Origin: a virus | IMG/VR virus record: IMGVR_UViG_3300032229_000042 | Coordinates: 1-42,884 of that record | Length of the DNA stretch: 42,884 bases | Strand: one strand, 5' to 3' | In this document: one piece after another, positions 1 through 37,166 of the stretch | Layout of the letters: every line of letters begins with the position of its first letter | Position numbering within the stretch: position 1 is the stretch's first letter | The notes under the pieces: model-generated | The model's input: the letters and a program-made list of their open reading frames with translations, nothing else | The model's database searches: none | What the model was told of the DNA's origin: nothing | Program-made: the position numbers and the translations under genes

Positions 1-2877
1 ATTCTTTTCTTGGATGTATTCATAAAAAGCTTTAGCGGCTGGAACACTCTGTAATCTCTTCCATTCAGCAGTTTCCAAATCAGCTTTAGGATGTTTATTA
101 ATTAAATTATATTGGAACCAACCAGCACCTGTTTTATTAGAAATGTCATATTTTCTCTTCATTTGAGAAATCTCATCAGCTTCTGCTTCTAAATTCTCTA
201 CATCAGTTCCCACTCTACTAGACATCTTGTTCTCAATTCTTAATTGCTCTTCTGCAATCTTTTCTTCAAGAGCAGCTTTGTAAGCTTCAACATCTATATT
301 ATCTCTAATCCAATCTACATCCTTCTCATTAATTTTTTGTTTTAATGTACTGAAGAATTTAGGATCGTATTGATCAATAAGTTCATTACTATCTTTTTTC
401 TTTAATATATCAAAGTAGTTTTTACCTGATAAGTTTTGACTTTTAGCCCATACATCAAAGTCTTTCTTAAGTCCTCCTAGTTTTCTTGTCTCATCAAGAG
501 TATCAAATCCAGCATAAGCAAAAGCCTTATTAGCTTTTCTATACAATGTTTGAATAGCTGCAGTTTGGAATATACGAGTGGAACCAAACAATTTACCTAT
601 ACCTTTAATAATTTTCTCAGGAGAAATTAAGTTCTTAATGTCTACACTAGCAGCAGTTACTTTTTCATTAAACTCATCAGATAAATTTCTTAATTGTGAC
701 TGTAGCTTTCTAGCATCCTTTGCAGTGCGTGTTAACTCTGCTTCAAGCTTTTTATCTTCCTCAGATAAATCTCCACTAAACAAGAAATCAAGTTCTGTAT
801 CTAAGTTTGTATATATAGTGATAGTTTCTTCAGCATTGTTAATCTCTCCAATCAATTCAGTTATCTCTGCTTCTGAGAAAGACTTAGGATCTTTTCCTTT
901 AAACTTATCGTTATACTTATTTATTAAATTAGACAATTGTCTATTTAACACCTTAGCTTGAGTTAACAAAGGAGCAATGTTACCTCTCATTTGTAACTGT
1001 CTAATACTTGTAAATAGAATATCTAATTGTTCATTCTTGTTAAGTTTTTCAGAAGGAGTTACACCTTTTTCAGAAAGTCTTTTATATTCAGCGTTAAGTT
1101 TAAATAATAGATCATCAATTTCTCTATTTCCTGTAGTTTCTGTTTCTAAACCTAATGGAATTAAATAATCCTGCTTAATGTTCTCAGCATACACATCCCC
1201 TATTTCAATACCTTTAATTTTAGGAATCTCCTTAGTTGTAAGATTCATTGGTGTGTATTCAGCCCTAATAGGAATCATTCTTGTTTGATCAAAGTCTTTT
1301 AGATTAACCCCATAGTTGTTCTGAACAATAAGCTTATATTGATTCATTTGGTTTCTCCAAGAATTAATATAATACCAAGGCAATTTACCCTTGTTTCTTT
1401 TTATATCAACATCGATAAACTTCCAGTCAAGGATGCTCACCTTTCCATCAGGAGTGATTGCTAAGAAATCTATCGTACCAGCCACACCTCTTTTAGCATC
1501 ATACACTTTCACCTCAGACATAAACTTGGTCCCTTTAGGAAATGTATTCAATCTCTGTTTTAAGTTATCTCTAAGAAGCTCATAGTAGTCCCTATTGTTA
1601 GGATCTAATTGAGATACATATCCTGAATCATCTAATGGATCATCTCTTAACTCACCATCTTTGTTTACAAATAGTTTAAATGCCTCTTCAATATCAGTAT
1701 GACCTTTTGTACCATTAGCTGCTTTCTCATCATCTACCAATTTTTTATATTCAGATTTAGTAAGTTCACCTGCATCTAACAAATCTTTATTCCAACCTTT
1801 AATAATCTCAGTAACTCTAAAAGGTACCTTCTTCCCATCTATATAATAACCATCATCTTTTTTCTGTATCTTGTTCTGAATTTCTACAAGTTTATCGTAT
1901 ATCTGTTGTTGAGAAGTTTTCTGTAAGTAAACATCTCCTTCCTCAGCTCTAATATCTTCAGCTGTACCAATTGCTTCTCCAGACATCACCTTAATAGCAG
2001 CTGTATCAAAACCTGCTTTAACAAACAAGTTCTTAATAGCATTAATAATCTTCTCCCACCAGCTCTCCACCTTAGCTAAGTTCTCAGGATTCTCCAATGT
2101 GCCCTCAGCTTTATTAATAATAGTTTCAGATAGCACCTTAGCAATAGCCTCTTTCTTTAACTTGATGATATCAGGTTTACCTTCTTTGGTTTGATAGTTC
2201 TTATCATTACCGTAGGTCTTAAACACCTCATTAAGGATAGCATAGTTATTAATCTCCTTTAACAGTTGATTAAATAACTTAGGATCATTCTGTTGTAGGA
2301 TTTCTACAGCAAAGTGCATAGCTTCCTCAGGAAGTGCTACAGCTTCTTTACCTTCTACAACCTGTACAAGCTTCTGCATAATGTTAGCAACACCATTAGC
2401 ATCTTGTGTTACACCATTAACATTAATAGACTTAAGTGTCTGAATATCAACACCTATTCTCTTTAAGAAATCTTTAACAATAGCTATACTAGCAGGAGAT
2501 GCAGTAGATGCAGGAATCCCTTCCATTTGAAAGAACTCACCTCTATCTTCTTCTGTATATCCACCTCTTTCTTTCTCAGCTTCTGTTAATGCACCAGCTT
2601 CTTCTTCTAATGCTTTCTTATAGTCATCAAAGTATTGTTGAGTCAAGTTCTCTGATGGACTAATATAGTAATGGTTTCTACTAGTAAAACTAGGAGTGAT
2701 TACATCTTCTTTAAACTGTTCATTAACTTTTCTAGCAGATTCAGCAGCTTTAGGAGCATCAGTTATTTCAAGCATGTCTCTTTGATCAAGCGATTGCTTA
2801 AAACCTTCATAGCCTAAAGCTTTTTCTCTAGCTTCATCAATGATGTCATATTTAATATCTAATAAACATTTGCCCAT
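1..2877 (-). CDS. Large internal/transcription-block protein with RecB/Cas4-like PD-(D/E)XK nuclease domain (3' partial)
   Basis: The reading frame stays open from the ATG at 2877 to the left edge (959 codons, no stop seen), so the C-terminus is missing. Residues about 450-520 carry a RecB/Cas4-type nuclease core: E455, D470 in GTID, D484-W-K486, and a QxxxY motif at Q510-Y514. A second patch, LPEEAMHF with E184, E185 and H188, resembles a segment I remember from giant crAss-like proteins and may be a degenerate metallopeptidase-like fold. The rest is charged and helical with repeated coiled-coil stretches. The start overlaps the stop of the polymerase giant as TAATG, so the two are probably translationally coupled and made together. 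A role in processing host or phage DNA early after injection is inferred. Nuclease fold: fairly sure. Overall function: unknown. Confidence 0.8.
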   Translation of the reverse strand, partial: MGKCLLDIKYDIIDEAREKALGYEGFKQSLDQRDMLEITDAPKAAESARKVNEQFKEDVITPSFTSRNHYYISPSENLTQQYFDDYKKALEEEAGALTEAEKERGGYTEEDRGEFFQMEGIPASTASPASIAIVKDFLKRIGVDIQTLKSINVNGVTQDANGVANIMQKLVQVVEGKEAVALPEEAMHFAVEILQQNDPKLFNQLLKEINNYAILNEVFKTYGNDKNYQTKEGKPDIIKLKKEAIAKVLSETIINKAEGTLENPENLAKVESWWEKIINAIKNLFVKAGFDTAAIKVMSGEAIGTAEDIRAEEGDVYLQKTSQQQIYDKLVEIQNKIQKKDDGYYIDGKKVPFRVTEIIKGWNKDLLDAGELTKSEYKKLVDDEKAANGTKGHTDIEEAFKLFVNKDGELRDDPLDDSGYVSQLDPNNRDYYELLRDNLKQRLNTFPKGTKFMSEVKVYDAKRGVAGTIDFLAITPDGKVSILDWKFIDVDIKRNKGKLPWYYINSWRNQMNQYKLIVQNNYGVNLKDFDQTRMIPIRAEYTPMNLTTKEIPKIKGIEIGDVYAENIKQDYLIPLGLETETTGNREIDDLLFKLNAEYKRLSEKGVTPSEKLNKNEQLDILFTSIRQLQMRGNIAPLLTQAKVLNRQLSNLINKYNDKFKGKDPKSFSEAEITELIGEINNAEETITIYTNLDTELDFLFSGDLSEEDKKLEAELTRTAKDARKLQSQLRNLSDEFNEKVTAASVDIKNLISPEKIIKGIGKLFGSTRIFQTAAIQTLYRKANKAFAYAGFDTLDETRKLGGLKKDFDVWAKSQNLSGKNYFDILKKKDSNELIDQYDPKFFSTLKQKINEKDVDWIRDNIDVEAYKAALEEKIAEEQLRIENKMSSRVGTDVENLEAEADEISQMKRKYDISNKTGAGWFQYNLINKHPKADLETAEWKRLQSVPAAKAFYEYIQEKN

Positions 2878-5800
2878 TATCCACAGTTATTTTGGTTATT
2901 GTCTTTAATTGGAGGTAATCCTTCTGGTTTAATCTCTTTAGCTTGATCTTGTAAAGGTACAACTTCTTCTTTTACTTGATTGAAATAATTAATAATATTT
3001 TGACTAGGAATTTCATTCTCTATCTTCACTGTACCATTATTAAACACAGACTTTCTAGTATCATTGTACATCTCTGTAGCATACTGACCATCTCCCCAAA
3101 GGTTGATAGCTTTGTAGTACACCTTAGAACCTATAGCTAATTCTGTTCCATCTTCGTATTTAACTTTCTGGAAGCCCATTACATCATTCAAAGATGTATC
3201 ACCTTCAGCCTTTCTCTTACCATAGTCAGCTCTTGTTACAGGCTTATTGTCAATAATGTCAATCTTCTGAGTACCATTATTTACTACTCTAGGGATTAAA
3301 ATGTAGTCAGAAGCCACATCCTTAAAGTTATCAAATCTGTCAAGCACTAATATATTTTTAACTCCTGCTTCAGATAAACCTTCTAATGTAGGGAATTGTT
3401 CAAACTGAACATCTACAATAAGCTCTCCTCTATCATTAAATCCTTCATTGTATAAGCTTGGGACAACATTAGTTAATTTCTTAAATATGTTTTCATCTTT
3501 CCAGTTATTTCTTTCAAATGCACCAAACTTGCTGAAGTTATCTAAGTTTAAATCAGAAGCTGCTGAGTTAACAGCATTTACCACTCTACTAGAATAATCC
3601 TCAATAGGGATGATATTCTTAATAGATATAGCTGATTGGTATGTTCCTTGAAGAATAGCCAAATCTACTATTCTATTATATAAAGCATTTGTAGCTGGAT
3701 TATCTCTAAGCTCTCTCATCATGTCAGTGTACAAGTTCTCATCGTACGCATCTTTAATATTAGCTTTTAATTTAATACTCTTGGCACCACCCACTCTATC
3801 AGAAGCAGCTTGAGTTAATTGCTGTAAGATTCCCATATCTGGATTTTCCTTTCTAGCTTTAGCTAACTCTGTAACTACAGCAGTGTATGGGTCAGTTAAC
3901 ATTTCTTTCATTCTGCTGTTTAAGTCAGTCTTAGTCTGGAAGATGTAGTCAATAAATGATGCCTTCACCTTAGTAGCAATTGTATCAAACTTATCTGCAG
4001 CTAAATACTCATTTGCCATATATGGAGCTAACACCTTACCAGTGATAACTGAATACTGAAGCTGATCAAATTTTAATATTTCACCTAGAGAATTAATAGA
4101 CTTTTCAAGCAATGTTGCTTTTTCACCTATAAATGATTTATCTAATATGTCTCCTGCAGATGTAAATATGTTTGACTCCTCAGCTGTTTCTGTTCTCATT
4201 CTCTTCTTACTCATAGACTCAGCACTATTAAACTTAGTAGTATCATAGTTTGTAGCTTGTGTAAGTTTAAATAAGTTTTGACCCATCTTATGGTATTTCA
4301 AGAACTCAGCTAATATTCTTTGTTGTTCAGCATTATTAATAGCCTTACCTGCATAGTAGTTCTCAATGTTAGGAATCAAGTTCTTCATCTCAATCTTAGT
4401 AGCAGCTACTAACTTTCTGTCAACTGGGAACTTCTTACGAACAACATCTAAGTTCTTCTTGCTGTATACAGACTTAGAATCAATGCTATCTAAGTAGTTT
4501 AAGTATTCTTTAATGATAGGCTGGTTCAAGAACAATGCTGTAGTTTTTACAGGAGTTCCTATTCTTGTTAAGAACATTGCTGTACTAACAACATTATTAC
4601 TACCTAATATCTTAAGAATGTATGGGTTCTTAGCCACATCCACAAATGCTGTAATAAATCCAGATAAGTTATCAGAGATGTATTTACCTGCTTTATCCAT
4701 AACACCAGACAAAGATACTACCTCTCTACCATTGATAGTCACCTTGTTATGAGGAAGAACTATTTGACCATTGCCTAATATCTTTCTTTCATAATCATTT
4801 AATGCAGCAATCTTAACAGGATCAAGATACACTTCCCCTTTCTGAGCTAATGAATGGTTTGTGATGTTTACAGCACCAATACCTACCCATCTCTTAGCAA
4901 TAACAAATGCATGTCTTAATGAAGTCATGAAGTTACCATCAAGAAGTCTATTCTTAATTTTAGTTTCATCTACTCCTCTAAGCTTATCTAATTGATTAGC
5001 AACATCTTCTAATCCAGCATCAGAGATAGGAGTAACCAATCTATCATAGTTCTCAGGAAGAGTTAACATTTCCTCAAGACTCTCATAGTATTCATTCTCA
5101 ATAGATTGTTTATATAACTTATCTGCTAATGTACCATAATCATCTTCTGTAGCTGCTACAGTTCTTTCGTTAATATCAAAGATGCTTTCTAAATCTTCTT
5201 TAAGAATGAACTTCTTAATAGCTTCTTTAGCTTGTTCACCATATCCAAAGAATGGAACTTGCTTCAATTGACCTTTAGCAGTTATGTATGTATTCTTTAA
5301 ATACATGTTAAGCTTATCTATATCAAAGTCAGATCCTGCTATCTCTGTGATTTCAGAAGGTAATACAACTGTCTTACCCATAGATTGTGGTAAGAAACCT
5401 TTAATCTTAAATGTTAATGAAGAACTTGCAGCCTGATTAGGAATACGAAAACCAATACCTCTAAGAATTGATTGATTTTCAGGCTTGTTTAAATATTCTA
5501 ATAATTCTTCATCTGACTTAAATCCAGCTTTCTTAAACTGGTCTTTGAACCAATGAGGAACTAATATCTCCATGTAAGGATTCTCTTTAGTGTAAGACTT
5601 AAGAGTACCATCTGTAAATACCTTCTTACCATTGATTTCTGTAACACCTCTTTTCTCTCCAGACTTCTCCCACATAGTTACAGGAACCTGTACTGCAGGG
5701 AAACCGTTCACCTTTGGAGAACCAATAGCCTTATCCACCATAGAGTAAAGAATACTTCTAATTTGTAGATATGCAGGAGATGATTCAAATGGAATTGGAA

Positions 5801-8800
5801 ACTCTCCATTCTCATCAATTCTGATTGTATCTCTAATGTTATCAGCTAACTCTCTTCTTGCCATCTCATACTCAAGAGCTTGAGACACACTTACAGGATC
5901 AACTAAATTATATCCATCACCAAGATCTTCAAGACCTAATTTGTTTAATAATTGGTTATATCCTTCTAAGAATAAGTTCTTTAATGCATTAGTGTTACGA
6001 GTATATGCTTTACCAGCAGCTTCACTCTTTGGAACACCGTTTTCAAATAAATCCAAACTAGATGTCTTAGTCATTTGAGAACCAAGAGTTTGTCCTTTAG
6101 CTCCTGTATCACTATTCTCCACTTGAATACCATAAGTCTTCCAAGCTACAGGAATGATATTGTCAAATGGTGCTGTATTAACAGATCCATCTTCAGTATA
6201 TAAATTATATAACTTCTCAGCACCCACCTTTCTACCAGACTCAAATACAGCATAATCAATTCCTTCTTTCCACATTTTAATGTAAAGATCTCCTAAGTTA
6301 GTTCCTTCAATAGCTTTATAGTATAAAGGCATTTGAGAAAACTTATCTAACACTAAGTCAAACTGATTTCTACCATATTTATTACCAGATACAATAGGCT
6401 TTAATTCTTCTGTAACATATTCAGGTTCAGGAGTTTTAAGTAATGCAACATCCTGCTTTTGAAGAGCTTTATTTGTATAAGTATACAATCCTTTATTAGC
6501 AAATGCATCTCTTGTGTAAGCCATTTGCCATTGATGCCAAACTTCAGCAGGACTGTTTAAATCCCATTGACCATTTCTAAGTTTAACATCTCTATATGCA
6601 CCATCCATTATCCAAGAACCAGCATCTGCTTCATTTATCTTACCTCTAACTGTTACATCTCTAAGAGTTACAGTGTTTAAATAAGGTCTAAATTGGTGAT
6701 ATCCTGGATCAGTAGAATTGATAGTTATTCCATTAGCTTTATTGTATTCTACATTATGGAATGAGTTAAACTCAGGGCTATCAAACGTTGTTGCTCTACC
6801 AGATAAGAAAGATTTGATACGCTTAGTCTCATCTAATATACCATCCTTAATCTTAAATTGGTACGGATCACCAAATAAAATCTTGTGCATTTCTATGTTA
6901 TTAATAACATAGTTTATTCTAGCAAATGTTAAAATATCGTTAACATCATCTTGTGTTAATGCATTCTTATTTAATGTTTCAGCTACAGTAAACTTGCCAT
7001 CTAAGTCTTCATATTTGAATGTACCATTAGAATTTCTAACAATTTTATTGTTGTACATTAATATTTTCTTAGTATCAGCTATGTTACTTTCAATAAATGC
7101 TTTCACATCAGCAGCTATGTTAGCAGAATTCTCTTTAACAAACTCATCTATTTCTTCTTGTGTAGCACCATTGATAACCAAGTTGTTAGCATTAGATAAT
7201 GTATTTGTTACAACTGTTTTACCTTCAGCATTCTTATAACTGTTTCTTAAAATATCTTTAAAGAAACGTAACTCTTTAGCTCTAGGAGCTGTATTTAATA
7301 AATAGCTTCTATCACTTTGAGCCAATGCTATATCATCCTTTAAATATCCTTTAAATATAGTAGCCACTTTATCCCAAGCTAATCCACCACTCACCTCAGC
7401 AAACTTAATAATATTACCCAAGTTAATCATCCATTCTGTAGATGAATCTGCTGGGATTATTATATAGTATTTACCATTAAGATTCTGGTTGATTTCTTGA
7501 GTAAATCTCTTACCAAGAGTTAATCCTGTAGTGCTTGTATCTACATTATTATTTTGGTCTTTTGTACCATCAATGTAAGATATTACTAATAATTTAATTC
7601 TCTTACCTGCAGCATTGTAAAACAATCCTCCCTTCTTAAGGAATTGAGAATGTGTAGAGAATACATCATTTAATTCTGTTCTGGTTTGTTTCAACTCTTC
7701 AACTGTATCAGCCTCATTAACCTCATTTGCAAACAATGAAGCAGCGTTGTTTTGATCATAAGCTTGTCTCTTCTCACCTTCAACATTAGGGAATGTACTA
7801 TCTTGAATAGGGTTTTCCACCTTAACATATAATTCAGCTAATGTGTCTAATGGACCATTGATACCCAATGTCTCACCAGTCACTGTAGCTATCTCTTTTG
7901 TCTTTCCAAAATATTTATGAATAGAACCTACAGCTTCAACAAACTCATCTCTTTGCTCAGGTTTCAACTTTAAATAAGTATCTAATGTATATGTTATACC
8001 AATCTTGTTTAAGAAGTCCACCATCTTTTGTGGTGTACTAATATCTACACCTTCTGTAGACATCACTTTATATCTTCCTTGTTCTTTATTTAATCTAACA
8101 AGAGAATCAGGATTTCCAGATAAATCTTTAAGATTGTTTACCCACTCTTCTTTAGTTTGTTTAGTTACAGTGAATTGATTAGCAGGAGCTGTATATACAT
8201 CTTCACCACTAATATATTGTACTAATGCTTGAGGGTTTTGTTTTGTAAATGTCTGATAGAATTGTACAAACAATCTCCAATCATGTGGTTCAAACTTGCT
8301 AAAGTCTATCTCCATAGTAGATCTATTACCCTTAAGACGATTGAACAATCTAACATAGTTAGAGTCATACTTAGCTAAGTCTGTTAACTTGTCTACCATC
8401 TTGCTCACTTTAGTAGTGTTAGCTAACTTATCTATCACTGTAGCAAATGCTCTACTAAAATTTAAAAGTTTCTTGAAACCTTTTGTAGCACCATCAGTAA
8501 GAGCTGATTTAGGTAAAGATAATGTAGAACTATTAACTTGGTTTGTAGAAACTGTTTCTACTAATGTACCTACTAGTAATTTAACAGGATATGGAGAATT
8601 CTTCTTCCACTCTGTAGTAAATGCTTCAGCAGCATACATTCTATTGGTTACATTTTCTCCATTGATATCCAATAAGTTATTCTCATCAAACTCAATTTTA
8701 AATGTACGTAAGAACTCTTTTGTCTTAGTTACAAGATCAGCCCAAGTCTTATCTCCAACCACCTTATCTTCTTCTGCATATTGAGCTTTAATAGAATTAA

Positions 8801-11800
8801 ATATCTCAGGAGAACTTAAGTTAGAAATTTCATATAGTGATCTATTTGTACCAAATACCTTTTCAAAGAATCTAGCAGTCATGTCTTGTACAACCTCATT
8901 AGTTTGTTGTTGAGTTAAGCCTTCAGCTGCTTTATATTCAGGAGCTGCAGATTTAACAGCTTCAGACAATTTAGCATCCTTATATTTACCTGTATCAATA
9001 GCTTTAAACAACTCTTCTTTTCTAGAAGGCTTGTTTACAAACGATTTAACAAAGTCAATAATATCTCTAAAGAACTTTAATATTCTTTCACCAATGTTTC
9101 TAGCTGGTAGCTTACCAAGTCTAAAGTCAGCAAAGTCATCAGCTATTCTTTCCTTAGCTTGTTGATTTGTAGCCTCTTCATAGAATAACATCTTACCAGA
9201 CTCTCTATCTTTAAACTTACCAGGCTTAGCTTTAAACTCATCAAGGATAGCTTGTTGCTCTTCTTGAGATAAGAAGCCTTTCCATATACCCTCAAATATC
9301 TCATGATATTCTGTACCTCTCTGACCACCTTTGTAGAACTTAGCTACACCATTCTCAAACACACCCCAAGCCTTTTGACCATCATAGGTAGTAATGATAC
9401 GATTTAATATCTCAAAAGGAATATTAGGAACATTCTTAGCATGCCATTCTTTGAACAATTCAATCTCAGCATCTGTCATTCCTTCAGTCTTCTCTTGACC
9501 TAACATTCTATATTCAGAATCTTTAGGAGCTTTAGAGTTGCTTAAGTCTGTTTTAGTTTCACCACCTTCTAAAGCAGCTAGTTCTGATCTAACTTCCATT
9601 AGTAATTTAGAAAATCTACCATTATCTTGTTCTACTCCTGCTTTATTTTTATGAGTAAGTTCAGTATTGCCAGTAGCTAATAAAGCTTTAAGAGCTTCAG
9701 GATTTTGTTCAAAAGAAGCTTTTATTAACTCTTTCATAATTCCAGGAGATTCTTTATCCCAAATATTTTTCTCAAAAGTTACACCAATATCTTTACGACC
9801 TAAAGCTTTTGCTTCTGAAGCAGATTTTGCTCTAAGTATAGTTTCTGAATGGTTGTTTACTTTAGCTTTAAAATATTGAGAAGTTTTATCATCCTTACCA
9901 CTAACATCATAATACTCTCTTTTTGCGTATTGAAATGCTTGCTCTACTGAATTAAACTTTTGCCCATTAAAAGTAAAAGGCCTATTAGCAAAGTTACTTA
10001 ACTCAGTATTATCTCCTGTACCTGCATAAATATTAATTTTACCAGATTCTGTTGTAACAGGTTGATTTTCAGCTGGTTGTGATGTTGTACCACCTTCTAA
10101 AGCAGCTAGTTCTGCATTATATTTAGCATTGATTTTATCTCTTACTCCTAATTTTTCTTCTACTTCTTTTAAATAATCTTCTGCTTCTTGTTTAGTAGCA
10201 AAGCCTCCTTGTGATAAAACTTCATTGTATAACATTCCTCCATTATCTCCAACAGCTTTATTAAACTTAGCTACATTAACTTTCCACAAAGGTGTTTTAG
10301 CTCCACTAGGTGTATCAGGATCTACATTTACACTAGCTTCATGAATATCTGATTTATGTAATAAATCTAATGTTTCTAATTCTTCTTGTCTTCTCTTTTC
10401 TATATCAGCTTTCTTATCTACAGATTCTGTGGAAGTGGTAACAGTACCAACCACCTTACCACTAGCAAGATCTGTTTGTGTAACTGTAGCAGCTGTAGAT
10501 ACAGGAGCAGCTTGTGCTTCTTTCTGAATCTCAGCAGCAATTCTAAGCTTAAGATAGTCTTTAACTATACCAAGGTCATCTTTACTAGCATCAAAACTAT
10601 CATTAGCTTTTAATGCCTCAACGATTGTACCAACCTTAGCACTATCACTAGCTATATCTGTAACTGTTTGATTATCATTGATTTTAACAAATGTATTACC
10701 ATTTGCATCTTGTGTAGCTGTGAACAATACAGGACCGCTAGATAGGTCAAATATATTCTCTGTAGTACCATCTAACTTATATCCACCAATAACATCAGTT
10801 GCTTCTTGTGTTTGAGCAACAGGTTTAACTACTACCTCAGGAAGTTCCATTCCTTCTAGGATAGCATATCTTTGTTTGAAGTTGTAAGGAACAGCATCTG
10901 TAATCTTTGCTACGTTTGTAGACAAAGGAGTTTCACTAATAGATCTAGAAGACCCATCAGGAAACTTATCTGCCAATAAATATGTTTGATAATTATCCCA
11001 CTCACTGATAACTAAATTGCCATCAGGACCAATATGTGGTTCTAAGAATTTATCGTGGAATTTTTTAGTAAGTGTATCTCTATTGATGTTTTGATACACT
11101 GTTTTTAATTGATCAACTATTTGATCTTCTGCTTCAGCAATCTTAGTTAGGTCATACTTTTCTTTACCTAACTCAAGATTCATCGTGTTAGTGTTAATAA
11201 AGATTTGATTAGCACCACTAGCTCCCTTACTCTTCCAATACAATACATTCTGCAAATATGTAGAATATAACCTATTGATTTTGATTGGTTTACCAGCAGC
11301 TAATTGATTATTAACTTCTTCAGAGATTTTCTTTAAAACTTCAAATACACCTTTAGCTTCTTTAGCTGTAAAGGTTCTACCTCTTACACCTTGTAGTGTA
11401 TCGTTATATTGAATGTAAGGATGTCCAATTTGAACTTTAACTTGCTTTCCTTTATGGAATATAAATCCGCTGCTAGATACTTGAATCAATCCTTCTTGTG
11501 TAGATATTACAGCTTTAGGGATTAATGCATCACTAATATTGTTTCTTTCATTTTGAACAGTAACAGGAATACCATTAGACACTGTGAAATTGTACACCTT
11601 ATATCCAGGTGCAGCAAATAACTCAGCTCTCTTAACTCTCCATCCAGCAGCTTTAGCTTCAGCTAATGCTTTTTGCTCAGCTCTATATCTAGGAGATTTA
11701 TCAGCATATCTTAAACTTGTAGTACGCATAGCGTTAAATACTACCTTGCTCATATCCATCTTCTCACCCACTTTAGCAACACGCTTACCTTCTTTATCTA

Positions 11801-14800
11801 CAAAGTAAACATTATCACCATCTTGTTCTACATATACAGCAGCTACAAATCCAAGATCTACATTTGTAAGATTCTCAATCTCAGCTTTAGGTTTACTAAA
11901 TTGTATTTCACTTAATCCTGTTAATCCAAGAGCGTCTTCTTGGTTAGGAGTAACTAGAATAGCTTTGATTCTAGCTTTGTTAGCAAATCCACCAACATTA
12001 TTTAAGAACTCAATAGCACGTGCCTGATGAGGTTTAGGTACAAAGTTATCTCCTTCATATTCAGATATAGTAGTTTCAAATAGTATATTGGCATCTATTA
12101 ATTTACCTTCATCTAAATTTACAACAACAGATGAATCAACTGTAGCAACATCACCAGAGTTAAGTTCAATCTCAGCTTGTTCTTTGTTTATATCATCAGA
12201 AAACTTCTGTAACTTCTCTTGTTCAGTTTGAACCTTTTCATATCCAGTTAACTTATCAGTACTAATATTTTGAATATCTCCATTGATATCTTCCACCTTA
12301 ATAGTACCATCAGGATTTACAGCAAGTATCTTAACTCTACGGAAATCTGATAAGTCATCATTAATATCAGTAGCTGCGTTATTTGCAGCTGTTTCTGTTT
12401 TATAGAATGCAACTTCCCCACTAGGAGCAGTCACTTGATATCTGTCCTCATCAATTTTATCTACTTTAGCCTTATCAAGACTAATGTTTACATATTCTCT
12501 TCCTTGTTGTACATCTTCTCTTTGACCCCCCTTATTAACAAAACTATAAAGTCGTTCAGCCTTTGGTTGTTCTACACCCTTTTCTTCTTTTTCTTGCTTC
12601 TTCTCATCAGCTTTTTCATCTTCTTCAACTTGATCAGCAAGATCATTAGCTACTTCATCAGCTTGATCAAAGTACTTTTGGAAACCTTCTTTGGTATTTA
12701 ATTCATCAAAAGCGTTAGATGCATCTCTTCTTCTTCTGTTTAAATTATTAATATCAACACCATATTGTATTAACTTATCAGCACTACCAACAGGAACTAA
12801 ATCATCTTTAGTTGCATCCTGACCATTTAATTCAAAGTTCAACAATGCCTCAAATATCTTATCGTTCTTATTATCTACTAATAAAGAATTAATTCTTTCA
12901 GAGTTTGTACGTAAGGCTTTAACTTGATCTTTAATTAATCTTCTATCAGCAGGAGTAGTGTACTCAGTAATTGTTTTGTTTAAGTTACTAGCTTTTTGCT
13001 CATAAAAATCACGTAGTTCTTCTAATCTTTTATCACTAGTAAGTTGACTAAGTGTATTATTACTAATTAAAGGATTAATTTCATTTACAGAATTTTGAAT
13101 TGCATTCAGTCTATTAGCTACATTTTTAGTTGTAACAGCATAATAAGTTAGATCGTTTTTATAATTTTCAAACTTATTGTAGTTATCTGCCTCAAATATT
13201 GAATTTAACTCCTCTTCACTAGGATTGCTTATATCTTTAACTTTAGGGTTATTCTTAAACGGATTAACTAAGTTGTTGCTAATCATATCCGCTGTAGACT
13301 TAATCTCATTTGCTTTAGCAATTAAGTTATTTACATATTCACCTACAGTTGTTTTATTTGTAGAGTTCCAATCTAATTGGAATAATCTTTCAAAATCTTC
13401 TTTCTTAAGATCTTTAAGCATTTTCAATTGCTCAATTGTTACATCATGCATTCCACCAGGAATACGTGATTGTACAAAGTTGAAGAATTGATCATCTTGT
13501 AAGTTCTTAAATTTAAATACATCACCAGACCTATTTGCTTCTTCCATTTCTTTAGCAATAGCAGCTGATGTTAATGTACTGTCGTACATTTGTTTCAATG
13601 TATTAGTAAGTCCTACATTGTTAACAATATTAATAGCATTAGCTAATCTAGCATTTGCACCTTTTCCTTTATAATTATCATACAAACGTTGACCACTACC
13701 TACAACTAATCCTGTAAGAGCACCAATCAACATATTCTCAATACCCTCTTGACTACCAAACTGTTGGTTCATACCATACACAGTAGACTTGATAACCTCA
13801 TTTAACTCATCTCTACCTTCTTTATAGTTACGATTTTTATACTTTCTTGTATAGTAATCATATGTTCCTTTTTCTGCAGCAAACTGTCCACCTTCTTCAA
13901 ATACACCTTCTGAAAACATTGTAGAAACAGTTGGTCTAATATTATCCCAAACTCTTCCAGCAAATGTACTTGCAACTTTCTTTTCAAATACATCAAGACT
14001 ACCTTCTTGTAATCCTATTCTACCTGCTCCTTCTATACCTTGTTGTAAACCACCAGCAACAGGACCAGCACCTCCAGCAATCATTGATTTATAAAGGTTA
14101 CCAAACATCAATGTATTAGATGCTGTCAAGAGAGCCATGTTTATACCAAATCTAGTATTCATACCAGCTCTAGCATAATTCTCTATTTCTTGCATTGCTT
14201 TAGCATCTGGCTCTTCGTTAAAGTTTTCAAACTTATATTGATTGATCAACTCATCTTTAATCTTTCTATAGCCCTCTCTAGCCTCAACAGCTGCTTCTGT
14301 TAAAGAAGAACCGTATATAGCCATACCATATCTAAACCCATTACTCACTCTAGCTGCTGCAGCTAATTGAGCTGCTTTATTCATATTAAGAATAAACTTC
14401 TCACTCTTATTTAAGTCTGTTGCTAAATTTTCAAGTCTAGTTAATTGTGAAAGGTTTTTTGCACCAAGCACTCTACCCACTGCACTTTCAGCACTAAATA
14501 GCTTATTTAAATATAAACTAGCTTTACCAACTTGAGCAGCCACTAATGGAATTTCTCCAATACCTTCTGTCACAAGACCTATAGCAACATCTTGTGCAGC
14601 AGCACCAAGAACACTACCTGCCATGAAACCTAAGTTAGGTATAAATTTTTCACCCCAGAAGTAAGAACTTCCTTTAGTGAAAGGAATAGCAGACATGTAT
14701 GGATGAGCTTTAGCATATGCACTTTGATAAGTAGGCATCCACTTATCTAAGTTATTCATCCAACCATCAATAACTCCTTCATATCCATCAGGATCTCCTG

Positions 14801-15248
14801 ATAGTTTACTTATATCACGATTCTTAATTGCAGAAATTGTATTAGGAATGTTTGTTAAGCTTTGAGCAAATGTACCAGCAGTTTTACCAACACCTTTAAT
14901 TACACCTCTTGCAAGGTTACCATACCAAGATTGTGTTTGTGCATTAATGTCTTCTAGGTCACCAAGATCTCTACCATATACAGGATAGCGTTGGTTAGCA
15001 AGAAGTTCACTTTGTGGAATATATCCAAAAGTTTGACCAAATCCCCCAGGACCAGGCATTTGACCCAATTGTTCTAATTCTGCAATACTATAACCTCTGC
15101 GGCTTACAGGAATATTCATAGGACCACCACCCTCACGTATGTCTAGAGGTAATGTTTCAGGAGATCCTATAGGCACAACAGGACTCCCTAAATTAGGATC
15201 CATTGATAAACGTTCATCATTCATTAGTTCGTCTGTTAAACTCGCCAT
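2877..15248 (-). CDS. Giant multidomain virion RNA polymerase protein of crAss-like phage, with NADAR domain
   Basis: 4123 residues. The polymerase signature is GSDFDIDKLNMYLKN, with D3307, D3309 and D3311 in place of the usual DxDGD of multisubunit RNA polymerases. About 45 residues upstream, FRIPNQ occupies the place of the RxPT element of beta-prime. DFDID is the catalytic loop of the virion RNA polymerase gp66 of Cellulophaga phage phi14:2. Other parts in order: small-residue hydrophobic segments at about 205-240 and again within 360-520, suited to membrane passage; an acidic/Lys linker near 880; a NADAR domain at 1738-1890; a peptidase-like patch TEYHEIFEG with H1982 and E1983; then polymerase sequence to the end. 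At roughly twice the length of phi14:2 gp66 it looks like a fusion. It starts one nucleotide after the stop of the 886-residue gene. Expected to be packaged and injected to transcribe early phage genes; this is inferred from the family. Confidence 0.85.
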   Translation of the reverse strand: MASLTDELMNDERLSMDPNLGSPVVPIGSPETLPLDIREGGGPMNIPVSRRGYSIAELEQLGQMPGPGGFGQTFGYIPQSELLANQRYPVYGRDLGDLEDINAQTQSWYGNLARGVIKGVGKTAGTFAQSLTNIPNTISAIKNRDISKLSGDPDGYEGVIDGWMNNLDKWMPTYQSAYAKAHPYMSAIPFTKGSSYFWGEKFIPNLGFMAGSVLGAAAQDVAIGLVTEGIGEIPLVAAQVGKASLYLNKLFSAESAVGRVLGAKNLSQLTRLENLATDLNKSEKFILNMNKAAQLAAAARVSNGFRYGMAIYGSSLTEAAVEAREGYRKIKDELINQYKFENFNEEPDAKAMQEIENYARAGMNTRFGINMALLTASNTLMFGNLYKSMIAGGAGPVAGGLQQGIEGAGRIGLQEGSLDVFEKKVASTFAGRVWDNIRPTVSTMFSEGVFEEGGQFAAEKGTYDYYTRKYKNRNYKEGRDELNEVIKSTVYGMNQQFGSQEGIENMLIGALTGLVVGSGQRLYDNYKGKGANARLANAINIVNNVGLTNTLKQMYDSTLTSAAIAKEMEEANRSGDVFKFKNLQDDQFFNFVQSRIPGGMHDVTIEQLKMLKDLKKEDFERLFQLDWNSTNKTTVGEYVNNLIAKANEIKSTADMISNNLVNPFKNNPKVKDISNPSEEELNSIFEADNYNKFENYKNDLTYYAVTTKNVANRLNAIQNSVNEINPLISNNTLSQLTSDKRLEELRDFYEQKASNLNKTITEYTTPADRRLIKDQVKALRTNSERINSLLVDNKNDKIFEALLNFELNGQDATKDDLVPVGSADKLIQYGVDINNLNRRRRDASNAFDELNTKEGFQKYFDQADEVANDLADQVEEDEKADEKKQEKEEKGVEQPKAERLYSFVNKGGQREDVQQGREYVNISLDKAKVDKIDEDRYQVTAPSGEVAFYKTETAANNAATDINDDLSDFRRVKILAVNPDGTIKVEDINGDIQNISTDKLTGYEKVQTEQEKLQKFSDDINKEQAEIELNSGDVATVDSSVVVNLDEGKLIDANILFETTISEYEGDNFVPKPHQARAIEFLNNVGGFANKARIKAILVTPNQEDALGLTGLSEIQFSKPKAEIENLTNVDLGFVAAVYVEQDGDNVYFVDKEGKRVAKVGEKMDMSKVVFNAMRTTSLRYADKSPRYRAEQKALAEAKAAGWRVKRAELFAAPGYKVYNFTVSNGIPVTVQNERNNISDALIPKAVISTQEGLIQVSSSGFIFHKGKQVKVQIGHPYIQYNDTLQGVRGRTFTAKEAKGVFEVLKKISEEVNNQLAAGKPIKINRLYSTYLQNVLYWKSKGASGANQIFINTNTMNLELGKEKYDLTKIAEAEDQIVDQLKTVYQNINRDTLTKKFHDKFLEPHIGPDGNLVISEWDNYQTYLLADKFPDGSSRSISETPLSTNVAKITDAVPYNFKQRYAILEGMELPEVVVKPVAQTQEATDVIGGYKLDGTTENIFDLSSGPVLFTATQDANGNTFVKINDNQTVTDIASDSAKVGTIVEALKANDSFDASKDDLGIVKDYLKLRIAAEIQKEAQAAPVSTAATVTQTDLASGKVVGTVTTSTESVDKKADIEKRRQEELETLDLLHKSDIHEASVNVDPDTPSGAKTPLWKVNVAKFNKAVGDNGGMLYNEVLSQGGFATKQEAEDYLKEVEEKLGVRDKINAKYNAELAALEGGTTSQPAENQPVTTESGKINIYAGTGDNTELSNFANRPFTFNGQKFNSVEQAFQYAKREYYDVSGKDDKTSQYFKAKVNNHSETILRAKSASEAKALGRKDIGVTFEKNIWDKESPGIMKELIKASFEQNPEALKALLATGNTELTHKNKAGVEQDNGRFSKLLMEVRSELAALEGGETKTDLSNSKAPKDSEYRMLGQEKTEGMTDAEIELFKEWHAKNVPNIPFEILNRIITTYDGQKAWGVFENGVAKFYKGGQRGTEYHEIFEGIWKGFLSQEEQQAILDEFKAKPGKFKDRESGKMLFYEEATNQQAKERIADDFADFRLGKLPARNIGERILKFFRDIIDFVKSFVNKPSRKEELFKAIDTGKYKDAKLSEAVKSAAPEYKAAEGLTQQQTNEVVQDMTARFFEKVFGTNRSLYEISNLSSPEIFNSIKAQYAEEDKVVGDKTWADLVTKTKEFLRTFKIEFDENNLLDINGENVTNRMYAAEAFTTEWKKNSPYPVKLLVGTLVETVSTNQVNSSTLSLPKSALTDGATKGFKKLLNFSRAFATVIDKLANTTKVSKMVDKLTDLAKYDSNYVRLFNRLKGNRSTMEIDFSKFEPHDWRLFVQFYQTFTKQNPQALVQYISGEDVYTAPANQFTVTKQTKEEWVNNLKDLSGNPDSLVRLNKEQGRYKVMSTEGVDISTPQKMVDFLNKIGITYTLDTYLKLKPEQRDEFVEAVGSIHKYFGKTKEIATVTGETLGINGPLDTLAELYVKVENPIQDSTFPNVEGEKRQAYDQNNAASLFANEVNEADTVEELKQTRTELNDVFSTHSQFLKKGGLFYNAAGKRIKLLVISYIDGTKDQNNNVDTSTTGLTLGKRFTQEINQNLNGKYYIIIPADSSTEWMINLGNIIKFAEVSGGLAWDKVATIFKGYLKDDIALAQSDRSYLLNTAPRAKELRFFKDILRNSYKNAEGKTVVTNTLSNANNLVINGATQEEIDEFVKENSANIAADVKAFIESNIADTKKILMYNNKIVRNSNGTFKYEDLDGKFTVAETLNKNALTQDDVNDILTFARINYVINNIEMHKILFGDPYQFKIKDGILDETKRIKSFLSGRATTFDSPEFNSFHNVEYNKANGITINSTDPGYHQFRPYLNTVTLRDVTVRGKINEADAGSWIMDGAYRDVKLRNGQWDLNSPAEVWHQWQMAYTRDAFANKGLYTYTNKALQKQDVALLKTPEPEYVTEELKPIVSGNKYGRNQFDLVLDKFSQMPLYYKAIEGTNLGDLYIKMWKEGIDYAVFESGRKVGAEKLYNLYTEDGSVNTAPFDNIIPVAWKTYGIQVENSDTGAKGQTLGSQMTKTSSLDLFENGVPKSEAAGKAYTRNTNALKNLFLEGYNQLLNKLGLEDLGDGYNLVDPVSVSQALEYEMARRELADNIRDTIRIDENGEFPIPFESSPAYLQIRSILYSMVDKAIGSPKVNGFPAVQVPVTMWEKSGEKRGVTEINGKKVFTDGTLKSYTKENPYMEILVPHWFKDQFKKAGFKSDEELLEYLNKPENQSILRGIGFRIPNQAASSSLTFKIKGFLPQSMGKTVVLPSEITEIAGSDFDIDKLNMYLKNTYITAKGQLKQVPFFGYGEQAKEAIKKFILKEDLESIFDINERTVAATEDDYGTLADKLYKQSIENEYYESLEEMLTLPENYDRLVTPISDAGLEDVANQLDKLRGVDETKIKNRLLDGNFMTSLRHAFVIAKRWVGIGAVNITNHSLAQKGEVYLDPVKIAALNDYERKILGNGQIVLPHNKVTINGREVVSLSGVMDKAGKYISDNLSGFITAFVDVAKNPYILKILGSNNVVSTAMFLTRIGTPVKTTALFLNQPIIKEYLNYLDSIDSKSVYSKKNLDVVRKKFPVDRKLVAATKIEMKNLIPNIENYYAGKAINNAEQQRILAEFLKYHKMGQNLFKLTQATNYDTTKFNSAESMSKKRMRTETAEESNIFTSAGDILDKSFIGEKATLLEKSINSLGEILKFDQLQYSVITGKVLAPYMANEYLAADKFDTIATKVKASFIDYIFQTKTDLNSRMKEMLTDPYTAVVTELAKARKENPDMGILQQLTQAASDRVGGAKSIKLKANIKDAYDENLYTDMMRELRDNPATNALYNRIVDLAILQGTYQSAISIKNIIPIEDYSSRVVNAVNSAASDLNLDNFSKFGAFERNNWKDENIFKKLTNVVPSLYNEGFNDRGELIVDVQFEQFPTLEGLSEAGVKNILVLDRFDNFKDVASDYILIPRVVNNGTQKIDIIDNKPVTRADYGKRKAEGDTSLNDVMGFQKVKYEDGTELAIGSKVYYKAINLWGDGQYATEMYNDTRKSVFNNGTVKIENEIPSQNIINYFNQVKEEVVPLQDQAKEIKPEGLPPIKDNNQNNCG
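9561..9586. repeat. 26-bp direct repeat, left copy, flanking the NADAR domain
   Basis: This copy (accaccttct ... gttctg on the plus strand) is identical over 26 bases to 10089-10114. On the coding strand it encodes ELAALEGG at residues 1889-1896, just after the NADAR domain. The two copies start 528 bp apart, exactly 176 codons. Confidence 0.9.
9579..10037 (-). other. NADAR (YbiA-like, DUF1768) domain inside the polymerase giant
   Basis: Residues 1738-1890 of the giant protein match the NADAR pattern: ELSNFANRPFTFNGQKFNSV followed by EQAFQYAK with the conserved E1769, then ALGRKD at 1816-1820, W1830 in NIWDK, and a C-terminal LLATGNTELTH ... NGRFSKLLMEVR block. NADAR proteins are N-glycosidases acting on ADP-ribose-containing or riboflavin-pathway intermediates, and some members remove ADP-ribose from guanine in DNA, reversing DarT2-type modification. 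The domain looks complete, with the key Glu kept. Its edges coincide with a perfect 26-bp direct repeat, so it may be a mobile domain cassette. A counter-defence role is inference. Confidence 0.85.
10089..10114. repeat. 26-bp direct repeat, right copy, flanking the NADAR domain
   Basis: Identical over 26 bases to 9561-9586. It encodes ELAALEGG at residues 1713-1720, shortly before the NADAR domain. Recombination between the copies would delete the domain and keep the frame. Confidence 0.9.
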
Positions 15249-15249
15249 A

Positions 15250-17910
15250 CTATTTCCAGGTTTTTATTGCTTCATTATAGGTATCGTCAGATATTGCAGT
15301 TAGTACATTTACCACACCACCTTCTTGAATATATCTATTACCAATTCTTTTACCTTTCCAAACGTTTTTACTTGGGTCAAAAGCATACATGATAACACTA
15401 TATCCATCAGTTTTTAATTGTCCATCATTGTCGTTATCTCCTTCAACATCAACTCTAACAAATTGAGCATTTTTTGAATTCTTTAAACCAGGTAGATCAA
15501 ACCCTGTTATTCTTGCTGTTACAGCATGACTATTATCCACTTGAGGAGATCTTGCACTTATTGTATTTGTAGTGAAATTAGGAGAAGTTGAAATTATATC
15601 TTTATATCTACTAAATGAACTAGTTTCTAATATTTGAGGAAATAAAGGTCTTGAGTCTGGTCCCATAGAAATAGCAACGTGATCTTTTCCAGTAGGATTA
15701 ATAACAACCATTTGTGTAGTACCGTCTTTAGATTTCTCTAATCCAAATCTTGTTTTAGCACCATCTGCACCTGTCATCCATCCTAAAGCTGTCTGTGCTT
15801 TATTTCCACCAGAAGTTAATTCATTTTTAGCTGCAATAGTAAGAAACTTAGTAATAGCATCATTAGTAGCTGCATCTGCTGGATTGAGACCTTCAAACTG
15901 AACAAGAGACTTTGGATTATGTTTAGCTAAATAATTGCTTGTAAATTCCGCTATCTTTGGAGCTATACTAGCTGTAACTTTTCTAGCTTCATCAATAGCA
16001 CTTACCAATTTCTTTTGTTCAGGAGTTTGAGAAAACTTAAATTTTCCAAGATTAGCTTCTAACAATGGTAAATATTTACCTCCTTTATAATTTTTAAAAT
16101 GAGCAATTGCAGCATCTGTGCGATATCCATAACCTGCACCAGGACCTACAATGTTTGTTTTAAACTTGTCCATCTCAATGGTTGCATCTGCAATATCAAA
16201 ACCTGAATAGTTACCTACTCCTTTTACTTTAGTTGCTAGTTCTTTATTTTTAAATTCCTCAGTTTTTTGTTGAGCTGTAGTTACTAAATTAGCTTGTGTA
16301 GTATATTCATCAACTGCTATTCTATGTTGCTCTAGATATTTTATTTCATCAGGGCTGTAATTTTTTCTAGGATTTATTTCATACTCTTTTATCAATTTAG
16401 CAAATGCTGCTTGTCTTTGTTTAGCGTTCAATTTAGGAAATAATCTATCTGCAAAAGTATTATCTAATGCTGTGATTGCATTTGCTTTATCTACAAGAAC
16501 TTTTGTTTGACTTTCTAAAGTTGGAGGATCTCCACCTGTAGGAAGTTGACCAGGTACTACTACCGTTCCAGGTTTTTTATTTTTTTCTTCTTCTTTTTTA
16601 TAATTTATCCAAAATGATTCTTGGTCCCAAGCAAGTCTTTGTTTAGCAAGATCAATATTAGCCCAACCTCTAGCACTAGCATCAGCAAATTCTCTATTAG
16701 CAAGATTGAATTTTTGTCTCTCCATAAACATTTGAGCGTATGGATTAGATGAAATTTCTTGTTTATAGCTTTTGTAAGCTAAGTCATTAGCCATGTTCAT
16801 CAAATGTTTTTGAGTGTACATGTCTGCTTTATATTTCTCTAATGTTGCAGGATCTTTAAGTGCTTCTAATGTAGCATTTAAATCTTTATCTAGCTGTCCA
16901 GATTTCTCTTGTTCTTGAAGATCTGCCAATCTAGCTTTAAGTGCACCTTGTTGTACAGCAGTTAAATTTGAATTTGTTAAAGCTACAGATAAGTTTACTA
17001 TCTCTTGAGATAGGAAATCTTTTTTATTATTATAGATATTAATAACATCTTTGGTAAATGCTTCAGGTTTAATACCTTTATATTTATACCGAGCATCAAT
17101 TCTTAATTGTTGAGCATCTCTACTATCTAAGCTATCCAAGAAGTTATTATATAATTTTTCAGCAGATGTACCTTTTGTTGACATCTTAAGCATAGCATCA
17201 TCTACTTGTCTCTCTCCTTTAGAAGGATCTGTAGAAACAGTTTGACGAGTTACAGGCTTTCCATCTTTACCTTTTATTACATTACCCTTAGGATCTTTAA
17301 CCACCTCTGTTCCAAAGTATAATGTATTACCTTTATCATCTCTTTTCCAAGGATTATCTGCAACATATTCATCAGGATGCTCCATTATAAGTTTAGCTTT
17401 ATCTAAAAGCTTTTTATCCACATCCCAATATTCTATATATTTACCAGAAAAAGGAGAGGTAAGACTCTTGTCATTTAACCATGTAGTTTTTTGTTCATTC
17501 CAATAATCATCATTACTAGGACTAGATTTACCTTCTTTAGCAGCCAGCTCTCTATCAGCATCTCCTTTTCTAACTACCTGGGTAGAATAAATAGCAGTTT
17601 GAACAATAGGATCTTTAACTATTTGATTAGCCATACCCCCTACAGAGTTAACTAATTGTTGATTAGAAAAGTCTCCAGCAGCCACAGTTCTCAATTTTCC
17701 ACCTAATTCATTAAGTTTAGATTGTAAGTATTGCTTGTGTTCATTCTTGTAAACATCCATCCCAGCTATATTATCCATATAGCTTTGAATCTTTTGCACA
17801 CCTTGGTCATACTGTTGTTGCTTGTACATGCCCACTTGGACCATAGCATCAACAGGTAACTGCTGTACGTAAGGATTAAATTGTGATATCTGATCGGTAA
17901 ATGAAGCCAT
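15250..17910 (-). CDS. crAss-like internal (cargo-type) virion protein, 886 aa
   Basis: The N-terminus (FNPYVQQLPVDAMVQVGMYK, then QQYDQGVQKIQSYMDNIAGM and YLQSKLNELGG) follows a pattern I associate with a conserved crAss-like protein encoded just ahead of the polymerase giant and thought to be carried inside the capsid. No signal peptide or membrane segment is evident. The middle is strongly helical and charged, ending near residues 430-450 in a Lys/Glu-rich stretch and a Pro/Gly linker. The gene stops with TAG one nucleotide before the start of the polymerase giant, and a candidate promoter sits in the 86 nt upstream. Co-packaging with the polymerase is inferred from synteny. No enzymatic motif was seen. 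Confidence 0.65.
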   Translation of the reverse strand: MASFTDQISQFNPYVQQLPVDAMVQVGMYKQQQYDQGVQKIQSYMDNIAGMDVYKNEHKQYLQSKLNELGGKLRTVAAGDFSNQQLVNSVGGMANQIVKDPIVQTAIYSTQVVRKGDADRELAAKEGKSSPSNDDYWNEQKTTWLNDKSLTSPFSGKYIEYWDVDKKLLDKAKLIMEHPDEYVADNPWKRDDKGNTLYFGTEVVKDPKGNVIKGKDGKPVTRQTVSTDPSKGERQVDDAMLKMSTKGTSAEKLYNNFLDSLDSRDAQQLRIDARYKYKGIKPEAFTKDVINIYNNKKDFLSQEIVNLSVALTNSNLTAVQQGALKARLADLQEQEKSGQLDKDLNATLEALKDPATLEKYKADMYTQKHLMNMANDLAYKSYKQEISSNPYAQMFMERQKFNLANREFADASARGWANIDLAKQRLAWDQESFWINYKKEEEKNKKPGTVVVPGQLPTGGDPPTLESQTKVLVDKANAITALDNTFADRLFPKLNAKQRQAAFAKLIKEYEINPRKNYSPDEIKYLEQHRIAVDEYTTQANLVTTAQQKTEEFKNKELATKVKGVGNYSGFDIADATIEMDKFKTNIVGPGAGYGYRTDAAIAHFKNYKGGKYLPLLEANLGKFKFSQTPEQKKLVSAIDEARKVTASIAPKIAEFTSNYLAKHNPKSLVQFEGLNPADAATNDAITKFLTIAAKNELTSGGNKAQTALGWMTGADGAKTRFGLEKSKDGTTQMVVINPTGKDHVAISMGPDSRPLFPQILETSSFSRYKDIISTSPNFTTNTISARSPQVDNSHAVTARITGFDLPGLKNSKNAQFVRVDVEGDNDNDGQLKTDGYSVIMYAFDPSKNVWKGKRIGNRYIQEGGVVNVLTAISDDTYNEAIKTWK

Positions 17911-36506: not shown

Positions 36507-37166
36507 TTATATACAGTTAGATACAATATACACTATGTAATTTTGACCACCTATTATAACGATATCTCCATTATTGAATGATCCTGCAGGTACACCGTTA
36601 ACTGTTAAAGCAACAGGTGAATTTACACGAGAAGTCAAGCTTGTAGACCATGTGCCTGAGATAAACGAAGGTGTGCTAGAGTTTGCAGATTGTCCAACAG
36701 ATAATCCAAGAATACCTCCAGATAATGCAGCTCCTGCTACAGCACTTGTTGTACAAGTGTTAGTAGGATAACCGTCTGCACTAATAGAACCAACTGTAAC
36801 TGTCTGCGATGGAGCCATGCTAGCCACAATTGTGAAGGATGATGAAAACACATTATAAGCTATGGTCAACGTCCTTAATACAGTTGTAGTGGTTGTAGTA
36901 GTTGATGTGGATGTAGATGATGTAGAAGTAGTAGTTGTTGTTGGAGCACCAGATATGTTTAAATATAAAGATCTATCACACACTCCTGTAGATCTAACTA
37001 ATATTTGTGTAGCATTGTCAGGTACAGATGTAAGATAGTATCCAGCCACTAACGCAGCTCTAGATACACCAGTTACTATAGGTGTTGTAAATCCGTCTGA
37101 ATTTGAGTAAATATCAAAAGGACCTACATCAATCCCAGCTAAGGTTAAGGTTATTAATACTGTCAT
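36507..37166 (-). CDS. Fibre-like protein: GPFDI module, poly-Thr linker, beta-rich C-terminal module, 219 aa
   Basis: Residues 1-70 (VLITLTLAGIDVGPFDIYSN, VTGVSRAALVAGYYL, LVRSTGVCDRS) are related to the N-terminus of the 287-aa protein. A run of Thr and Ser follows (about 75-97), then a Ser/Thr/Gly-rich beta-type module ending GQNYIVYIVSNCI. No enzyme motif is present. The arrangement of a small conserved head, flexible linker and variable tip is typical of a virion-surface or fibre component. It is the last gene before the double terminator. Virion attachment through the first module is inferred. Confidence 0.65.
   Translation of the reverse strand: MTVLITLTLAGIDVGPFDIYSNSDGFTTPIVTGVSRAALVAGYYLTSVPDNATQILVRSTGVCDRSLYLNISGAPTTTTTSTSSTSTSTTTTTTTVLRTLTIAYNVFSSSFTIVASMAPSQTVTVGSISADGYPTNTCTTSAVAGAALSGGILGLSVGQSANSSTPSFISGTWSTSLTSRVNSPVALTVNGVPAGSFNNGDIVIIGGQNYIVYIVSNCI

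What the first reader, a model, noticed from the sequence alone, without database searches (positions are those of the whole stretch)
9561..10114. NADAR domain bounded by a perfect in-frame 26-bp direct repeat inside a virion RNA polymerase giant
Seen directly: 26 identical bases at 9561-9586 and 10089-10114, start to start 528 bp = 176 codons, both encoding ELAALEGG, with the NADAR domain (residues 1738-1890) between them. Inference: the domain was added, or can be lost, as an in-frame cassette, making the polymerase giant a platform for swapping accessory enzymes. Third-codon drift would be expected to erase such identity, so the duplication may be recent or maintained.
Basis: partly seen in the sequence, partly recalled or inferred. 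Interest (0 to 1): 0.85.

Follow-up and report, generated by a model that had tools for sequence, protein, structure and literature searches.

The report
Swappable domain cassettes in phage polymerase
The 26-base repeat is the shared end piece of protein cassettes that uncultured crAss-like phages appear to trade within the giant RNA polymerase that such phages are thought to inject into their hosts; the NADAR enzyme here is one such passenger.

Summary
The repeat is real (26 bp, 9561-9586 and 10089-10114, in frame) and beyond chance. The 4123-aa gene is a crAss-like virion RNA polymerase giant, and a NADAR domain lies between the copies.

The repeat is not a private duplication. It is the 3' part of the C-terminal end piece of a cassette family found in other uncultured crAss-like phages: N-cap KADIERRRQEEL, variable core (about 30-290 aa), C-cap INAKYDAELAALE. 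I found 55 distinct capped modules in 45 core clusters. Wherever the host ORF could be mapped it is this giant, mostly in one slot upstream of the polymerase core. The same cores (78-91% aa) recur between unrelated flanks. Caps share 82% of codons between phages whose neighbouring domain shares 58% (random 53%).

NADAR recurs in this giant, usually C-terminal.

Best reading: a hot spot where accessory domains are exchanged in frame by recombination at shared caps. Modular exchange is well supported by sequence; the recombination mechanism, virion packaging and functions of most cores are inferred.

The parts
2877..15248 (-). 4123-aa giant: crAss-like virion RNA polymerase with accessory domains
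   Evidence: PDB 6vr4; SDFDID at residue 3306
9537..10550 (-). variable slot between conserved blocks D (ends about residue 1560) and E (starts about residue 1925); 65 to 711 aa between blocks in 43 non-redundant relatives
10377..10412 (-). N-cap of cassette 1 (KADIEKRRQEEL), predicted helix
   Evidence: helix in model
10134..10376 (-). core of cassette 1 (SDIHEA core); 87% aa and 91% nt identical to a core in L031, whose flanks are 42% (aa) and about 40% (nt, background) identical
10095..10136 (-). full C-cap of cassette 1 (KINAKYNAELAALE), 41/42 to family consensus
10089..10114 (-). 26-bp repeat, copy 1 (3' part of full C-cap plus GGTGGT)
9585..10037 (-). NADAR domain; E1769, K1776 and phage-type H1866 at the catalytic positions
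   Evidence: catalytic positions from PMC11543638
9561..9586 (-). 26-bp repeat, copy 2 (half C-cap fused to NADAR C-terminal helix; 3' edge of the slot)
8799..9476 (-). conserved block E downstream of the slot (EYHEIFEGIW / ERIADDFADF)
5316..5333 (-). RNA polymerase catalytic-type DxDxD motif (SDFDID)

Best explanation
The repeat marks the C-terminal ends of two adjacent passengers in a hypervariable slot of a crAss-like virion RNA polymerase giant. The slot accepts protein cassettes made of an N-cap helix, an unrelated variable core and a C-cap helix. Cassettes move between phages as DNA units, most likely by homologous or annealing recombination at the shared 36-42 bp caps, which keeps the frame. 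Here a full cassette (SDIHEA core) is followed by NADAR, which ends in half a C-cap, so NADAR sits between two C-caps and could be gained or lost by recombination between them. NADAR would be carried in the virion with the polymerase and would remove ADP-ribose, blunting NAD/ADP-ribose-based host defence early in infection. Shown: cassettes, caps, one main slot, shared cores in unrelated flanks, relatives with and without NADAR. Inferred: the recombination route, virion delivery in this phage, NADAR activity and its benefit.
For: Caps conserved and bounded sharply at the DNA level. 69 modules, 55 distinct, 45 core clusters, 31 singletons; alike cores with no detectable flank similarity, e.g. 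L123/L135 90%, L109/L116 78%, L138/L167 91% (up flank), L127/L131 84% (up flank). DNA identity drops from 77-97% in cores (83-100% in caps) to about 40% (background) on both sides. Codon identity at aa-identical sites: caps 0.815, block E 0.580, random 0.533; caps higher in 446 of 463 phage pairs and independent of relatedness. In host ORFs with both flanking blocks detected the cassette lies between D and E. L138/L167: core 0/56 synonymous changes, caps 6/25, as expected for crossovers in caps. Single-cap relatives L035, L008 and cap-less L006. Tandem arrays in other phages. NADAR in 61 related loci: 41 C-terminal to the polymerase core, 6 upstream of it, L258 in the same slot. NADAR fold: PDB 2b3w and 8bau. 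Virion packaging of crAss001 RNAP giants: PMC10172136.
Against: Recombination itself was not observed; no recombinase was linked to the caps. Most phages carry one full C-cap at a time, so exchange needs co-infection. Some passengers at the slot lack caps (L010, L029) and most NADARs in these giants have no cap after them, so caps are not the only route. Some capped ORFs had no detectable polymerase block, so their identity as the same giant is not proven. All these loci are metagenome contigs.
Confidence: 0.8

Rival explanations
1. The caps are only a structural helix pair required by the protein; their likeness reflects selection on the peptide and shared codon usage, with ordinary vertical descent.
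For: Both caps are predicted helices and peptide identity is very high.
Against: Codon choice in caps is far more uniform than in the conserved neighbouring block of the same phages (0.815 against 0.580, random 0.533), includes minority codons (ATC, CTA, GCA), and the same cores sit in unrelated flanks.
Confidence: 0.08
2. The caps are recognised by a dedicated site-specific recombinase or other element machinery, making each cassette a true mobile element.
For: Sharp, DNA-level ends; always in frame; mainly one slot per genome.
Against: Caps diverge at synonymous sites as fast as cores, which a recognised DNA site should not do; no recombinase, inverted terminal repeat or target duplication was identified.
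Confidence: 0.1
3. The 26-bp repeat is a target duplication or a recent local duplication made when NADAR was inserted in this phage alone.
For: NADAR is flanked by the repeat and absent from the site in L006 and L008.
Against: The same 26-mer occurs singly in L035, its 21-nt core is exact in 55 loci (window included), and copy 1 is part of a full 42-nt cap of the upstream cassette.
Confidence: 0.1
4. Chimeric metagenome assembly at the 40-bp caps creates apparent swaps.
For: All loci are uncultured assemblies and caps are near-identical short repeats.
Against: The same core with the same two flanks recurs in several contigs from different IMG records (L109/L126/L168; L116/L160; L056/L095/L101; L103/L132; L105/L147); shared cores in different flanks are often diverged (81% nt), which chimeras would not be.
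Confidence: 0.04

Closest known systems
Crassvirales virion RNA polymerase (phi14:2 gp66, PDB 6vr4; crAss001 RNAP cargo proteins)
   Same: Homologous polymerase region, DxDxD motif, giant size, same type of gene
   Different: Carries a variable internal slot with capped accessory domains, not mentioned in the passages of the papers I read
Phage polyvalent proteins (Iyer et al. 2017, PMC5512222)
   Same: Very large phage protein combining several conflict-related domains, predicted to enter the host with the DNA
   Different: Here the modules have conserved, DNA-alike end pieces and move as defined cassettes; the paper's text contains neither NADAR nor crAss phages
Polymorphic toxins, CdiA/Rhs C-terminal cassettes
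   Same: Works alike: constant carrier protein, conserved boundary motif, many unrelated effector ends (own knowledge; PMC3482391 and PMC3150448 abstracts)
   Different: Cassettes are internal, capped on both sides, no immunity gene seen; passengers not shown to be toxins
NADAR domains (YbiA; DarT-NADAR antitoxins; phage NADARs)
   Same: Fold, Pfam family and catalytic positions including the phage-type histidine
   Different: Fused inside or at the end of a virion polymerase giant instead of standing alone
Domain mosaicism in phage proteins (PMC10684548)
   Same: In-frame sharing of protein fragments between unrelated phages
   Different: A specific cassette family with fixed caps and one main slot

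Membership tests
Crassvirales virion RNA polymerase | sequence homology to phi14:2 RNAP | tested here: met
   6vr4 E 1.9e-10; tblastn to phi14:2 and crAss001
Crassvirales virion RNA polymerase | DxDxD catalytic motif | tested here: met
   SDFDID at residue 3306
Crassvirales virion RNA polymerase | packaged in the virion and ejected | not testable with these tools
   RNAP cargo found in crAss001 virions by mass spectrometry (PMC10172136), not shown for this phage
NADAR | Pfam model above gathering score | tested here: met
   50.4 bits against 35.1
NADAR | fold | tested here: met
   model with pLDDT above 90 over most of the domain; Foldseek 2b3w E 3e-7, 8bau E 5e-6
NADAR | catalytic residues E88, K95, D171 of E. 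coli C7 NADAR (histidine in phage NADARs) | tested here: met
   E1769, K1776 (same +7 spacing) and H1866, invariant in five crAss-like NADARs
NADAR | ADP-ribose hydrolase activity | not testable with these tools
   needs purified protein
Polyvalent protein | several distinct conflict-type domains in one large phage protein | tested here: met
   polymerase, NADAR and further variable modules in one ORF
Polyvalent protein | delivery into the host with the DNA | not testable with these tools
   inferred from crAss001
Polymorphic toxin (CdiA/Rhs) | variable domain at the C-terminus | tested here: not met
   the capped cassettes are internal; in nearly all mapped ORFs they lie upstream of the polymerase core
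Polymorphic toxin (CdiA/Rhs) | cognate immunity gene | not tested
   no immunity gene was searched for
Intein | Hint splicing domain | tested here: not met
   no Hint or intein model in the Pfam scan of the giant
Site-specific mobile element or integron cassette | recombinase and recognised DNA site | tested here: inconclusive
   no constraint on cap synonymous sites beyond that of cores; recombinase genes not surveyed

The most novel reading that the evidence does not exclude
A family of mobile protein-coding cassettes, defined by shared end sequences, that moves between otherwise unrelated phages into one slot of the virion RNA polymerase giant and lets these phages change the accessory proteins they carry into the host, in the way an integron or polymorphic-toxin locus changes its cargo.
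Probability: 0.4. Interest if true: 0.92.

Novelty: new variant of a known kind. Interest (0 to 1): 0.8.

Why it matters
It would explain how crAss-like phages, a very abundant group of viruses, vary the proteins they deliver first without disturbing an essential polymerase. It gives a sequence tag (the caps) for finding many uncharacterised candidate anti-defence or takeover domains, which can be cut out and assayed one by one, and a natural set of domain boundaries for in-frame insertion into a large polymerase.

Tried and rejected
Chance repeat: rejected by shuffles. NADAR-specific duplication: rejected as sole explanation by the family-wide caps. Special DNA-level constraint on the caps: first suspected from codon uniformity, then not supported, since caps change at synonymous sites as cores do. 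Intein: no splicing domain. Caps in annotated phage records: the N-cap peptide gave only one weak, unrelated hit. Caps in cellular genomes: 2 hits in 84,980 species genomes, both MAG contigs that encode capped modules in large ORFs and look like phage contigs. Pfam for 20 passengers: no family above its cut-off; weak hints only (DnaJ-like E 0.018; Arm-DNA-bind_4 E 1.4e-4, just below cut-off). First structure prediction with three rows was poor (pLDDT 56); replaced by a 37-row alignment. Literature searches found no description of these caps or this slot, but only open-licence papers are held.

Full report
Observation. The repeat is exact and in frame as reported and is the longest exact direct repeat in the window; shuffles gave at most 22 bp for the window and 16 bp for the gene. 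The minus-strand ORF 2877-15248 encodes 4123 residues. Its residues 2800-3300 match the phi14:2 RNA polymerase structure 6vr4 (E 1.9e-10) and the RNA polymerases of phi14:2 and crAss001, and a DxDxD motif, SDFDID, lies at 3306. NADAR is above the Pfam cut-off. The window is a whole 42,884-base virus record, probably a genome fragment.

What the repeat is. Relatives were fetched with the polymerase region and with the region just downstream of NADAR. The stretch between two conserved blocks, here called D (about residues 1250-1560) and E (about 1925-2150), differs in almost every relative. In many of them it begins with KADIERRRQEEL and ends with INAKYDAELAALE. Degenerate DNA patterns for these two peptides, which leave third codon positions free, found 84 and 79 stretches in the viral collection. 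Modules with both caps have cores of about 30 to 290 aa. In host ORFs where both flanking blocks were detected, the cassette lies between D and E, upstream of the polymerase core; some ORFs are too short or too divergent to place. Of 40 records searched, one carried two exact full C-caps, 33 carried one and 6 none.

Cassettes move as DNA. Aligned over all loci, nucleotide conservation is confined to the caps and falls to background on both sides. Codons within caps are far more uniform than codon usage predicts, including minority codons (ATC for Ile 60% against 10% background, CTA for Leu 55% against 11%). As a control for relatedness, codon identity at amino-acid-identical sites was compared in 463 pairs of phages: block E 0.580, close to the random expectation of 0.533, but caps 0.815, with caps higher in 446 pairs and no dependence on the relatedness of the pair. 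So caps share much more recent ancestry than the genes that carry them. Cores are very diverse (55 distinct modules, 45 clusters, 31 singletons), yet alike cores occur in unrelated flanks. In such pairs DNA identity is 77-97% over cores, 83-100% over caps and about 40% outside, with edges at the caps. Synonymous change is equal in caps (42/217) and cores (162/770) of same-core pairs, so caps travel with cores and no extra constraint on their DNA is needed. One pair (L138/L167) has an unchanged core at 56 synonymous sites but 6 changes in 25 cap codons, which fits crossovers inside the caps. Repeated finding of the same core with the same flanks in contigs from different records speaks against assembly chimeras.

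The window's own array. Upstream is a complete cassette: N-cap 10377-10412, SDIHEA core, C-cap 10095-10136 (41/42 to consensus). Its core is 87% identical to that of L031, whose flanks are only about 42% identical. Then comes NADAR, whose terminal helix LLMEVRSEL runs into AALEGG. Other NADARs in these giants end LLMEVREELRGTQ or similar, so copy 2 is half a C-cap joined to NADAR's native end. The 3' edge GGTGGT followed by (V)K(T/P)D is shared with L008 and L035, each of which has one cap and no NADAR there. L006, 95% identical in block E, has neither. The window therefore carries two passengers in tandem, each ending in a C-cap; the 26-bp repeat is the common part of these caps. Tandem arrays with similar ends occur elsewhere (L056, L119, L133, L149, L163, L204). 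The order of events that placed NADAR between the caps cannot be fixed from these data; recombination between a capped NADAR and the resident C-cap is the simplest route.

NADAR as passenger. A search with five crAss-like NADARs, three of them from giant or large annotated ORFs of gut crAss phages, found 61 loci: in 41 NADAR is C-terminal to the polymerase core, in 6 upstream of it (L258 in the same D-E slot), 7 are in giants without a detected polymerase block and 7 in short or fragmentary frames. L031 has NADAR at its C-terminus. NADAR is thus a recurrent companion of this polymerase at shifting positions. The model of the segment (mean pLDDT 83) matches YbiA 2b3w and the ADP-ribose complex 8bau. 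E1769 and K1776 match E88 and K95 of E. coli C7 NADAR in kind and spacing, and H1866 is the histidine reported for phage NADARs at the third position (PMC11543638).

Mechanism. crAss001 carries its RNA polymerase proteins in the virion and is proposed to eject them partly unfolded (PMC10172136). By analogy the passengers here would arrive before any phage gene is read. NADARs reverse guanine ADP-ribosylation by DarT toxins (PMC11543638; PMC11125620 abstract) or may act on soluble ADP-ribose signals (PMC9503650). A pre-loaded NADAR would protect incoming DNA or erase a defence signal at once. This is inference. For most other cores no family is recognisable.

Relation to known systems. By membership this is a crAss-like virion RNA polymerase with a NADAR domain, and it fits the polyvalent-protein concept (PMC5512222). 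It works like a polymorphic-toxin carrier with a boundary motif, but is not one: cassettes are internal and capped on both sides, and no toxin or immunity gene is shown. No description of these caps or of this slot was found in the held literature.

Noticed in passing
8799-9476 (residues 1925-2150): Block E carries EYHEIFEGIW and ERIADDFADF, reminiscent of a zinc metallopeptidase motif; not confirmed by Pfam.
   Followed up: no
L159, L204, L031, L004, L030, L215 slot: A Pro/Thr/Ala-rich linker (AATVTQTTPYGTEAGPAVTTSTESVD or close variants) precedes many cassettes in different phages and may be a second shared recombination handle.
   Followed up: partly
L029 and L217: A 140-aa passenger without caps (TVFRILEQAFYEGNGKRYDVI...) is nearly identical in two giants with different surroundings; uncapped passengers also move.
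   Followed up: partly
L163, slot residues after the first C-cap: A J-domain-like passenger (weak DnaJ match, E 0.018, with HPD motif) ends in a C-cap-like KFDEELTALE, much as NADAR does in the window.
   Followed up: partly
L229 (cr130_1, 12932-17402): A gut crAss phage CDS of 17.4 kb, annotated as DprA-like, contains NADAR; L010 has a possible SLOG-like passenger in the slot. cr130_1 and cr131_1 NADAR frames hold in-frame stop codons, open under TAG=Q.
   Followed up: partly
1-2877: The ORF after the giant matches PHROG 298 (exonuclease, E 3.9e-10) and weakly a Cas9 WED model; it may be a nuclease.
   Followed up: no
27347-28416, 36884-36961, 38550-38589, 39633-39669: Thr-rich repeats (ACN codons on the minus strand) recur in several genes of the structural block.
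   Followed up: no
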